In this document: positions 52,277-54,554 of the stretch, one piece after another
How the letters are laid out: each line of letters begins with the position of its first letter
Position numbering within the stretch: the stretch's first letter is position 1
The notes under the pieces: generated by a model
Database searches by the model: none
What the model was told of the DNA's origin: nothing
The model's input: the letters and a program-made list of their open reading frames with translations, nothing else
Assembly (NCBI GenBank): GCA_008727115.1
Contig: CP044131.1
Location: forward strand, 1,364,001 to 1,428,000
Reading direction: 5' to 3'
Length of the DNA stretch: 64,000 nt
DNA from: Comamonas testosteroni
GTDB taxonomy: Bacteria > Pseudomonadota > Gammaproteobacteria > Burkholderiales > Burkholderiaceae_C
Translations under genes and position numbers: made by a program

Positions 52277-52969
52277 ATGAACACCTTGCCTTTGACTTAT
52301 CTGGAGCGCTCGGCACAGCCGGTGGGCGGTCAGCCAGCCTGGCTGCTGGTGCTGATGCATGGCGTGGGAAGCAATGAGCAGGACCTGTTTGGACTGGCTC
52401 CCTATATCCCGCCTCAGTTCCATGTACTCAGTCTGCGTGCACCTTTTGCCATGGGCATGGGTGCCTATGCCTGGTTCCAGTTCACGGTAGATGCTGATGG
52501 CACGCGCCATATCAATGTGCCTCAGGAGCAGCAGGCAAGAATCCTGGTGCAGCAGACGGTGGAGGCCGCCGCCTCGCAACTGGGCATTCCGCCGGAACGC
52601 ATCGTGCTGGGCGGTTTCAGTCAGGGCGGCATCATGGCACTGAGCCAGTTGCTGACCCAGCCGCAGACCTTGCGTGGCGTGCTGGTCTGGCATAGCCGTT
52701 TGCTGCCCGAGATTGCATCACTGCATGCGCCTGCTGCCGCTTTTGCAGGCAAGTCGGCTTGGGTCAGTCACGGCAGTTATGACAATGTGATCCCTTTGAC
52801 CAGTGCGCATGCTGTGCGTGACCGCCTTGCAGCACTGCCTCTGCAACTGAGCTATCACGAGTATCCAGGTGCTCATGAAATCCGCCCCGAGGAACTGCGA
52901 GCGAGCATGCAGTGGTTGCAGGACTTGACGGTATCTGCGAATGACTTTGGTGACGCATCCGATCAGTGA
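52277..52969 (+). CDS. Phospholipase/carboxylesterase-family hydrolase (YpfH-like)
   Basis: 230 aa. The nucleophile elbow is LGGFSQGGIM with S115, the acid is D169 in HGSYDNVIP and the base is H200 in EYPGAHEIRPEE. LMHGVGSNEQDLFGLAP gives the oxyanion region. This fits the small cytoplasmic serine esterases like E. coli YpfH. The substrate is unknown. Its stop codon overlaps the 3' end of the convergent emrE-type gene by 7 nt. Confidence 0.88.
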   Translation: MNTLPLTYLERSAQPVGGQPAWLLVLMHGVGSNEQDLFGLAPYIPPQFHVLSLRAPFAMGMGAYAWFQFTVDADGTRHINVPQEQQARILVQQTVEAAASQLGIPPERIVLGGFSQGGIMALSQLLTQPQTLRGVLVWHSRLLPEIASLHAPAAAFAGKSAWVSHGSYDNVIPLTSAHAVRDRLAALPLQLSYHEYPGAHEIRPEELRASMQWLQDLTVSANDFGDASDQ

Positions 52970-53295
52970 CCGGCAGTGCTCGAGAACAGATTGATCACAA
53001 GGACGCCGCCCACAATCATGGCCATGCCGGCCAGAGCCGGTGCATCGAGCTTTTGGCCCTGCCAGAAATAGGCAACTGCAGCCACCAACACGATGCCGAC
53101 ACCGGACCAGATGGCATAGGCCACGCCAGTCGGTACGGTTCGCAGCGTCAATGACAGCAGATAAAAGGAAATGGAATAGCCGGTGAGAGCGATGGCGGTA
53201 GGGGGGAGTTTGGTGAAGCCGTCCGAGCGAGCCAGAAACGACGTGGCAATCACTTCGCAGATGATGGCCAGCCCCAGGTACAGGTAATTTGTCAT
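52963..53295 (-). CDS. emrE: SMR-family multidrug efflux protein, EmrE-like
   Basis: 110 aa with four membrane helices. The essential Glu is in helix 1 (YLGLAIICEVIATSFLARSD, E13), and the signature PTGVAYAIWSGVGIVLVA and GMAMIVGGVLVINL are typical of EmrE/QacE. These proteins exchange protons for cationic compounds as antiparallel dimers. The ATG at 53295 is the family start. The gene converges on the esterase gene, with overlapping 3' ends, and lies downstream of map on the same strand. Confidence 0.92.
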   Translation of the reverse strand: MTNYLYLGLAIICEVIATSFLARSDGFTKLPPTAIALTGYSISFYLLSLTLRTVPTGVAYAIWSGVGIVLVAAVAYFWQGQKLDAPALAGMAMIVGGVLVINLFSSTAGH

Positions 53296-53446
53296 GGTGG
53301 CGACTGTAGAACCAGTTGGGGCAGCCGCAGCCTGATCGATATACAAAGCCCTATGCGCATTTGGCGCAGCCTTGTCAAAGGTTGCAGGCTGTGCGCACAG
53401 GTGATGCGCGCAAAATGGCCGGCACACAGCCTGCAGTGTCGGGCGC

Positions 53447-54253
53447 TCAGATAGCCGGGTAGTCGCCAGTGCCTTCTGGCCAGGTGGTCAATACATCAAA
53501 GCCGGTTTCGGTGACCACGACCATATGCTCCCACTGTGCAGAAAGCGCCTTGTCATTGGTGATGACCGTCCAGCCATCGGACAGCTCGCGTGTGGCAGCC
53601 TTGCCTGCGTTGAGCATGGGCTCAATGGTAAAGATCATGCCGGGCTGCAGTACCAGCCCCTGGCCGGGGGTGCCGTAGTGCAGCACCTGTGGCTCGTCGT
53701 GGTAGACCTTGCCAATACCGTGACCGCAATAGTCGCGCACGATGGAAAAGCGCTCGCGCTGCGCTACTGACTGAATGGCGTGCCCTACATCACCCAGTGT
53801 GGCGCCTGGTTTGACAGCATGAATGCCAGCGACCAGCGCCTCATAAGTCGTATTGACCAGACGCTTGGCCAGATTGCTGGGCTGGCCGACGTAGTACATG
53901 CGGCTCGTGTCCCCTATCCAGCCTTCGGGTGTTGTCACAGCAACGTCTACGTTGACGATGTCTCCCTCCTTGAGGATTTGCCCTGCGTCCGGTATGCCGT
54001 GGCAGACCACATGATTGACCGAAGTGCACACCGTTTTGGGAAAGCCGTAGTAGCCCACGTTGGTCGGTACGCATTTCAGCTCGTTGACGATGTAGTCGTG
54101 GCAGAGCTTGTCCAGGTGCTCAGTGCTGACGCCGGGCTGGACATGAGGTGTCAGCATGGCCAGCACTTTGGCAGCCAGTCCCCCGGCCTTGCGCGAGAGG
54201 TAGATGTCGGACGCGTCGTTGATGGGGACGACTTTTTGCTTGCTGCGCTTCAT
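53447..54253 (-). CDS. map: Type I methionine aminopeptidase paired with ParD-like protein
   Basis: 268 aa, complete. The metal site is intact: NVDVAVTTPEGWIGDTSRM gives two Asp, YCGHGIGKVYHDEP the His, FTIEPMLN a Glu and WEHMVVVTE the last Glu. It removes N-terminal Met from nascent proteins. The usual map neighbours rpsB and tsf are absent. Instead its ATG overlaps the stop of a ParD-like gene (ATGA, 54250-54253), so the pair is one translational unit. It is most likely an accessory MetAP, with the main map elsewhere. Whether it acts as a toxin-like partner is an open question. Confidence 0.93.
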   Translation of the reverse strand: MKRSKQKVVPINDASDIYLSRKAGGLAAKVLAMLTPHVQPGVSTEHLDKLCHDYIVNELKCVPTNVGYYGFPKTVCTSVNHVVCHGIPDAGQILKEGDIVNVDVAVTTPEGWIGDTSRMYYVGQPSNLAKRLVNTTYEALVAGIHAVKPGATLGDVGHAIQSVAQRERFSIVRDYCGHGIGKVYHDEPQVLHYGTPGQGLVLQPGMIFTIEPMLNAGKAATRELSDGWTVITNDKALSAQWEHMVVVTETGFDVLTTWPEGTGDYPAI

Positions 54254-54516
54254 TGCAGGCCTCCTGCCAAACGTACGGTGCGAGGGCGACGAGTGCTGCG
54301 ATCGACTTCAAAACCGGGTTCAGTCTGGGCAACCAGACTCTGGGCCTCTTGCAAAAGCAGGGCACAAATGCCCTCGTAATTGAGCTGAGGGTGATGCTCT
54401 GCCAGTTGGCCTACACGCAGCCAATGCTCGGCTTGGGCGTTAATGGAGCGACCCAGGGCCGCACTGGAAACACGAATCTGGTCGTGCAAGTGATCTGAAA
54501 TTTTGACGATTCCCAT
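54250..54516 (-). CDS. ParD-like antitoxin-family protein upstream of map
   Basis: 88 aa. The first half, MGIVKISDHLHDQIRVSSAA followed by LGRSINAQAEHWLRVGQLAE, looks like a ribbon-helix-helix DNA-binding domain of the ParD-like family (PF11903). The C-terminal part has ALLLQEAQSLVAQTEPGF and a basic end. ParD-type antitoxins bind their partner protein and repress their own operon. A perfect palindrome lies 20 nt upstream (54536-54554), a good operator candidate. No ParE-type toxin is present; the partner position is taken by map. Confidence 0.75.
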   Translation of the reverse strand: MGIVKISDHLHDQIRVSSAALGRSINAQAEHWLRVGQLAEHHPQLNYEGICALLLQEAQSLVAQTEPGFEVDRSTRRPRTVRLAGGLQ

Positions 54517-54535
54517 GCGGAGGGATCATAGGGGG

Positions 54536-54554
54536 AATATATGTTTCATATATT
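54536..54554. promoter_or_regulatory. Palindromic operator candidate upstream of ParD-like-map operon
   Basis: AATATATG-TTT-CATATATT is a perfect palindrome with 8-bp arms, 20 nt before the ParD-like start. A -35-like TTGTCA (minus strand) adjoins it. Size, symmetry and place fit autoregulation by a ribbon-helix-helix protein. Confidence 0.6.

What the first reader, a model, noticed from the sequence alone, without database searches (positions are those of the whole stretch)
54250..54554. ParD-like antitoxin homologue fused by translation to a methionine aminopeptidase, with its own palindrome
Seen: an 88-aa ribbon-helix-helix-like protein whose stop overlaps the map start (ATGA), and a perfect 8-3-8 palindrome 20 nt upstream. 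The MetAP keeps all metal ligands and lacks its usual neighbours rpsB/tsf. Known: ParD-type antitoxins repress their own operon and bind a toxin partner. Inference: the operon is built like a toxin-antitoxin module in which the toxin slot is taken by an N-terminal-processing enzyme, perhaps titrated or controlled by the ParD-like protein. This is my best candidate for an undescribed system.
Basis: partly seen in the sequence, partly recalled or inferred. Interest (0 to 1): 0.72.

Follow-up and report, generated by a model that had tools for sequence, protein, structure and literature searches.

The report
Self-regulated spare methionine-trimming enzyme operon
A small DNA-binding protein and a spare copy of the enzyme that trims the first amino acid off proteins form a widespread two-gene unit with its own conserved control site, which looks like a regulated back-up enzyme rather than a toxin and its antidote.

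Summary
A PF11903 ("ParD-like") ribbon-helix-helix (RHH) gene overlaps the start of an intact type I methionine aminopeptidase (MetAP), with a perfect palindrome just upstream. The pair is a conserved operon: MetAP follows in 80 of 80 best relatives and in 30 of 30 high-scoring PF11903 genes of a family sample. The palindrome is a conserved operator (strict form in 61 of 80 upstream regions, shuffle maximum 1); in 32 pair-bearing genomes 22 of 24 strict sites lie at these operons. The MetAP is accessory: 33 of 33 pair genomes have at least two MetAPs, against 8 of 46 without. It keeps catalytic residues, but its methionine (P1) pocket differs from the resident enzyme's in 22 of 22 genomes. Toxin-antitoxin logic is weakly supported: the RHH tail is poorly conserved and related MetAPs occur without an RHH gene beside them. 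Best reading: a self-repressed, inducible, pocket-altered MetAP. Boldest open reading: the repressor, a Met-Gly substrate, senses MetAP capacity through its own N-terminus. My searches found no description.

The parts
54250..54516 (-). RHH (PF11903, 'ParD-like') gene, 88 aa, MGIVKIS...RSINAQAEHW; inferred autorepressor
   Evidence: PF11903 103.4 bits; homologues directly upstream of MetAP in 80 of 80 loci
53447..54253 (-). accessory type I methionine aminopeptidase, 268 aa, P1 pocket N59/Y62/F65/C70/Y177/W221 (E. coli numbers)
   Evidence: TIGR00500 297.3 bits; ligands and pocket
54250..54253 (-). ATGA overlap of RHH stop and map start (translational coupling, inferred)
   Evidence: sequence; an overlapping start also available in 76 of 80 relatives, taking the start codon nearest the RHH stop
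54536..54554 (.). operator palindrome AATATATG-TTT-CATATATT
   Evidence: related palindromes in relatives; its 15-nt core form TATAYGNNNCRTATA occurs once in this 4.1-Mb genome
54525..54530 (-). putative -10 box TATGAT, 8 nt before the RHH start codon, next to the operator (inferred; would give a leaderless or near-leaderless mRNA)
   Evidence: sequence and the same box in L034-L037; not listed by the simple promoter scan

Best explanation
It is an autoregulated operon for an accessory MetAP. The RHH protein binds one or more palindromic units (TATAYG-NNN-CRTATA, often two units 11 bp apart) over its own promoter and represses both itself and the translationally coupled MetAP. When repression is lifted, the cell gains a second, catalytically competent MetAP whose methionine pocket differs from that of the resident enzyme, so it can do N-terminal methionine excision when the resident enzyme cannot, either on a different substrate form or in the presence of something that disables the resident enzyme. 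Shown by sequence: gene pair, overlap, conservation, operator, accessory status, intact catalytic motifs, altered P1 pocket. Inferred: repression, its lifting by an unidentified signal, and the benefit of the altered pocket.
For: Linkage: 80 of 80 nearest loci; 30 of 30 PF11903 genes above 85 bits, 3 of 10 at 65-85 and 0 of 40 below 65 in a family sample of 200 genomes. Operator: ATAYGNNNCRTAT in 61 of 80 upstream regions, shuffle mean 0.14 and maximum 1; half-sites recur 11 bp apart. In 32 pair-bearing genomes the 15-nt form has 24 sites in 19 genomes; by coordinates 22 lie at pair promoters and 1 before a second MetAP. That MetAP, in Massilia (L216), has the operator and an ATGGGA start in front of it although no RHH coding part lies between. 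Accessory status: 33 of 33 genomes with the pair have at least 2 MetAPs. Pocket: differs from the resident enzyme in 22 of 22 genomes compared, by 2 to 5 of 6 positions, while M206, Q233 and the metal ligands are kept. P1 and P1' residue lists: PMC10724148 Table 2, passage seen.
Against: No experiment shows repression or activity. 19 of 80 upstream regions lack the strict palindrome and 12 the relaxed form; 13 of 32 pair-bearing genomes have no exact 15-nt site anywhere. Three resident MetAPs (L117, L123, L127) already have the clade A pocket NYFCYW, so that pocket may reflect ancestry and not a special substrate. No inducing signal and no third conserved neighbour of 90 aa or more was found. 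The simple promoter scan found no minus-strand promoter there.
Confidence: 0.8

Rival explanations
1. Feedback sensor: the RHH repressor is itself a MetAP substrate. With enough MetAP activity its Met1 is removed and it binds the operator; when MetAP is limiting (metal starvation, inhibitor, oxidised methionine) newly made repressor keeps Met1 at the DNA-contacting ribbon, binds poorly, and the accessory MetAP is induced. This refines the best explanation; it is not an alternative to it.
For: Residue 2 is Gly in 80 of 80 paired RHH proteins (76 ATG and 4 GTG starts) and in 20 of 20 family-sample pairs found with the PF11903 model. In the 61 distinct cores of the 80 loci K5 and S7 are invariant too. 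Four residues precede K5, against six in the FitA-like RHH profile (residue 5 on profile position 7) and five or more in 17 of 19 unpaired PF11903 proteins, aligned by eye. The hhalign register puts residue 1 where CopG has R4, but with probability 0.4% only; that CopG R4 faces DNA is recalled.
Against: One of the two patterns that fetched the 80 loci contained MGI, so Gly2 there is partly by selection. K5 and S7 are replaced (N or R; D or N) in some clade B members. 18 of 19 unpaired PF11903 proteins also have a small second residue, Gly in 5, so cleavability is not special. Gly2 may be structural. The direction of any effect of Met1 is unknown.
Confidence: 0.22
2. Type II toxin-antitoxin module with MetAP as toxin: the RHH protein neutralises the MetAP by binding it and represses the operon with it.
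For: Gene order, overlap, size, autoregulatory operator, Pfam family name, and presence on plasmids. A GGLDL-like stretch at residues 61-65 recurs in about half of the 61 distinct RHH sequences and could bind a partner.
Against: Beyond that stretch the RHH tail varies in sequence and length, whereas unpaired PF11903 proteins end in recurring tails such as AEPFxF or PFVPRSR. Related MetAPs occur without an RHH in cis: L148 (the only PF11903 gene reported in that genome scores 48.6 bits and lies elsewhere), and L216, L217, L219, though these last three genomes have a pair elsewhere. No PADLOC match. Active-site residues as in resident enzymes.
Confidence: 0.07
3. Bypass enzyme: the accessory MetAP is insensitive to natural MetAP inhibitors met in soil and plant habitats and is induced when the resident enzyme is blocked.
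For: P1 pocket differs from the resident in 22 of 22 genomes; many hosts are soil or plant bacteria by their record titles; a two-gene unit in varied neighbourhoods and on plasmids. Resistant target duplicates are a known strategy (recalled; papers on it seen only in a search listing).
Against: No inhibitor acting on these bacteria was identified; pocket differences also fit ancestry.
Confidence: 0.2
4. Altered substrate form: the more polar pocket of the accessory enzyme accepts an N-terminal methionine variant such as methionine sulfoxide.
For: Clade B has S59/Q62/N70/M177 in 11 of 11 and clade A N59 and Y177 in 76 of 77, against P59 in 18, Y62 in 21, C70 in 23 and F177 in 20 of 23 residents.
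Against: Substrate inference from six residues is weak; the clade A pocket also occurs in three residents.
Confidence: 0.12

Closest known systems
Type II toxin-antitoxin operons of the ParDE / FitAB kind (RHH antitoxin first)
   Same: RHH gene first, overlapping second gene, palindromic operator; weak similarity to the FitA-like RHH profile (8 of 58 members, best E 0.0011, below the curated cut-off for the window protein).
   Different: Second gene is an intact MetAP, the RHH tail is poorly conserved, and related MetAPs are found without the RHH beside them.
PF11903 'ParD_like' family as annotated (ParD-like family protein)
   Same: Member by score.
   Different: The family sample splits into a high-scoring MetAP-linked kind and lower-scoring unlinked genes with recurring tails; the antitoxin name fits the linked kind badly.
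Bacillus subtilis map / yflG (two active MetAPs, differentially expressed; PMC1266368, abstract and passages seen)
   Same: Second, differently regulated type I MetAP in one genome.
   Different: yflG shares an operon with yflH and is about two-fold affected by the GntR-type YvoA; no RHH partner is mentioned in the passages seen.
Resident proteobacterial MetAP
   Same: Metal ligands and P1' gate.
   Different: P1 pocket residues 59 and 177, in clade B also 62 and 70, and in clade A residues 99 and 237.
RHH repressors of the CopG / MetJ / Arc kind
   Same: Short N-terminal ribbon and tandem palindromic operator about one helical turn apart (comparison recalled).
   Different: Their operons do not encode MetAP (recalled, not tested); similarity to CopG not significant.

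Membership tests
PF11903 ParD_like | score above the curated cut-off | tested here: met
   103.4 bits, cut-off 23
Type I methionine aminopeptidase (TIGR00500) | score above the curated cut-off | tested here: met
   297.3 bits, cut-off 171.35
Type I methionine aminopeptidase (TIGR00500) | five metal ligands and two catalytic histidines | tested here: met
   all present in the window protein; among 88 paired enzymes one has Q171 and one a gap at 178
Type I methionine aminopeptidase (TIGR00500) | aminopeptidase activity | not testable with these tools
   needs an enzyme assay
Type II toxin-antitoxin system | small gene first, overlapping second gene, palindromic operator upstream | tested here: met
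   that the operator is autoregulatory is inferred
Type II toxin-antitoxin system | second gene encodes a known toxin family | tested here: not met
   MetAP by Pfam and NCBIfam, no PADLOC match
Type II toxin-antitoxin system | antitoxin carries a conserved toxin-binding tail | tested here: inconclusive
   tail mostly unconserved in 61 distinct sequences, but a GGLDL-like stretch recurs in about half
Type II toxin-antitoxin system | second gene not kept without the first | tested here: not met
   MetAP without RHH in cis in L148, L216, L217, L219; three of these four genomes carry a pair elsewhere
Type II toxin-antitoxin system | toxicity and neutralisation | not testable with these tools
   needs expression tests
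Ribbon-helix-helix repressor | RHH fold | tested here: inconclusive
   weak FitA-like RHH match (E 0.0059, 17 bits against a cut-off of 27); structure prediction off; CopG comparison not significant

The most novel reading that the evidence does not exclude
A bacterial N-terminal-processing sensor: the RHH autorepressor is a dedicated MetAP substrate whose processed or unprocessed N-terminus at the DNA-binding ribbon reports the cell's methionine-excision capacity, and it switches on a pocket-altered back-up MetAP when the resident enzyme is blocked, metal-starved or faced with modified methionine.
Probability: 0.2. Interest if true: 0.88.

Novelty: new variant of a known kind. Interest (0 to 1): 0.62.

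Why it matters
MetAP is generally essential in bacteria (recalled, not tested here), yet how its activity is sensed and regulated is little known (recalled). The pair is on Pantoea plasmids and a conjugative Klebsiella plasmid, and public records name it only 'ParD-like family protein' plus 'map'. It offers a compact, testable case of regulated N-terminal methionine excision and of a MetAP isozyme with a changed methionine pocket, which also bears on MetAP as a drug target. It suggests that 'ParD-like antitoxin' misdescribes the MetAP-linked branch of PF11903.

Tried and rejected
Toxin-antitoxin reading: considered first, lowered by the tail, the MetAP copies without RHH and the family results. 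Third partner: clustering ORFs of at least 90 aa around the 80 loci gave, apart from reading frames overlapping the pair itself, clusters of at most 16 loci, mostly one Pseudomonas group; smaller proteins were not covered. Regulon: few other sites (the looser 13-nt form has one more site in the window genome, at 3798431). Two independent origins of the MetAP partner: the tree puts paired MetAPs in two groups (77 and 11 rows), but one clade is not rejected (p-AU 0.425), and the bootstrap had not settled. Pocket change as proof of a new substrate: weakened by three residents with the clade A pocket. Peptide deformylase: the genome has two; not followed. E. coli genomes: no near-mode match to the Klebsiella-plasmid pair. 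PHROGs gave one significant family for each protein, both of unknown function. PMC3948609 (passages) only co-mentions a MetAP and unrelated toxin-antitoxin genes.

Rows dropped or weak: the 80 loci were chosen by similarity and pattern. In one search the map start was taken as the start codon nearest the RHH stop; L070 runs off its contig and L056 matches over 193 aa only. In the class survey 29 non-own loci were read for adjacency, not all listed PF11903 matches (7 adjacent, L005 with a MetAP remnant, 21 without). In one search one MetAP fragment row (G463) was left out. In some searches duplicates (L003, L145, L146, identical rows) and rows under 200 aa were dropped. In one search three of 20 sole-MetAP rows were evidently read on the wrong strand; the other 17 have F177. 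One search missed some pairs because of overlapping ends (for example L008); groups for searches were set by hand.

Full report
What is there. The minus strand of 53447-54516 holds two overlapping genes: an 88-aa PF11903 protein and a 268-aa type I MetAP. The stop of the first and the start of the second share ATGA. A perfect palindrome lies at 54536-54554, beginning 20 nt before the first start codon; it is not a chance product (0 of 100 shuffles). The genome has one PF11903 match and two MetAPs above the family cut-off.

The pair is conserved. In 80 of 80 a MetAP lies directly downstream on the same strand, and in 76 a start codon overlaps the RHH stop (exceptions L056, L057, L070, L091). 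These 80 were chosen by similarity to the MetAP-linked kind, so I also took an unselected sample. Of 200 genomes of the family, 70 carry 80 PF11903 genes. MetAPs were located in all 70 and in 9 genomes without PF11903. All 30 PF11903 genes above 85 bits have MetAP directly downstream, 3 of 10 at 65-85 bits, 0 of 40 below 65. PF11903 thus holds at least two kinds of gene, and only one is MetAP-linked. In the class-wide sample 67 of 369 genomes have PF11903; of the 29 non-own loci read, 7 are adjacent to MetAP and one (L005) is followed by a MetAP remnant. The pair is also on plasmids: Pantoea leads the counts, with 95 records in each of the two plasmid searches (not matched record by record, but in NZ_CP082342.1 the two hits are neighbours), on a Polaromonas plasmid, and on a conjugative Klebsiella plasmid where it lies between two IS26 transposase genes.

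The operator. Upstream regions of the 80 loci carry ATAYG-NNN-CRTAT in 61 cases (shuffles of the same sequences: mean 0.14, maximum 1) and a relaxed form in 68; half-sites recur 11 bp apart. In 32 pair-bearing genomes the 15-nt form has 24 sites in 19 genomes and none in 13; comparing coordinates, 22 sites are at pair promoters, one is before a second MetAP of Massilia, and one (G375 C1:516749) is unrelated. In the window genome the 15-nt form occurs only at this promoter; the looser 13-nt form has one further site. In the Massilia case (L216) operator and ATGGGA start stand directly before the MetAP reading frame, without the RHH coding part; that genome has a full pair elsewhere (L042). I read this as one repressor acting on two MetAPs, by inference.

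The MetAP is accessory. 33 of 33 pair genomes have at least two MetAPs; 38 of 46 without the pair have one. In a second, partly overlapping set of 33 genomes, 30 have at least two above the cut-off; the exceptions are L005's genome, with a truncated partner, and two metagenome assemblies. The tree shows two paired groups, 77 and 11 rows, though a single clade is not rejected.

A changed pocket. Metal ligands and H79 and H178 are kept with one substitution and one gap among 88 paired rows, and M206 and Q233 in all. The P1 subsite of E. coli MetAP is C59, Y62, Y65, C70, F177, W221 (PMC10724148 Table 2, passage seen). Residents mostly have P59, Y62, C70, F177. Clade A has N59 and Y177 in 76 of 77; clade B has S59, Q62, N70 and M177 in 11 of 11. 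Of 20 family-sample pairs, 17 are of the first type and 3 of the second; 17 readable sole MetAPs of 20 all have F177. In 22 of 22 genomes compared the accessory pocket differs from the resident's by 2 to 5 of 6 residues. Against a simple reading, three residents (L117, L123, L127) have the clade A pocket and are the nearest residents to clade A in the tree, so clade A may have inherited it.

The small protein. Among the 61 distinct RHH cores of the 80 loci, G2, K5, S7, H11, R15, R23 to E30, W32, G36, E40, P43 and L45 are invariant; with clade B members added, K5, S7, E30 and L45 are only nearly so. After residue 58 conservation falls away, apart from a GGLDL-like stretch in about half; many relatives are only 66-70 aa. 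Unlinked PF11903 proteins instead end in recurring tails. This leans towards a DNA-binding protein without a dedicated partner-binding tail. Position 2 is Gly in 80 of 80 (partly by selection, since one search pattern held MGI) and in 20 of 20 family-sample pairs: an expected MetAP substrate, with almost no sequence before the ribbon. 18 of 19 unlinked proteins also have a small second residue, so this is suggestive only.

Mechanism. I favour self-repression by the RHH protein through the operator, with induction of a back-up MetAP. The inducer is unknown. The most interesting version makes the repressor's own N-terminus the sensor of MetAP capacity; nothing here excludes it and it is easy to test. 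A toxin-antitoxin system is unlikely for the reasons given, but not excluded without expression data.

Literature. Searches for ParD-like with methionine aminopeptidase (none), ribbon-helix-helix with it (one, not relevant by its passages), ParD-like/DUF3423/PF11903 (eight, none on MetAP by title and abstract start), antitoxin and operon (16 papers, 15 listed), autorepressor (one, on an ectoine regulator) and methionyl aminopeptidase with ParD (none) gave no description. Two further searches on second MetAPs and on methionine excision with repressors listed nothing on this pair either. The library lacks most subscription papers, so absence from print is not shown.

Noticed in passing
window 54516-54530; L034-L037: In the Comamonas/Delftia group a TATGAT box lies 8-9 nt before the RHH start codon, suggesting a leaderless mRNA; only 25 of 80 RHH starts have a Shine-Dalgarno-like word, against 6.8% of random windows.
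   Followed up: partly
L216 (G375 C31): A second Massilia MetAP stands directly behind operator and ATGGGA start, without the RHH coding part.
   Followed up: yes
L114 (NZ_CP028479.1 13550-21738): A stretch between two IS26 transposase genes on a conjugative Klebsiella plasmid carries LysR, NTF2-like protein, the RHH-MetAP pair, alpha/beta hydrolase and LysR.
   Followed up: partly
L149, L153-L156: Another kind of second MetAP without an RHH gene, with L177 and a varied residue 62, in five genomes of this family.
   Followed up: partly
G000:C1:4056769-4057218 and 1549499-1549969: The genome has two peptide deformylase genes as well as two MetAPs.
   Followed up: no
L112:4001-4405: Achromobacter RHH protein is 135 aa long, with a long Ala/Lys/Ser-rich tail.
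   Followed up: no
window 52963-53427 (-): Small multidrug resistance (SMR) transporter gene directly downstream of map; no such cluster stood out among the neighbour clusters printed.
   Followed up: partly
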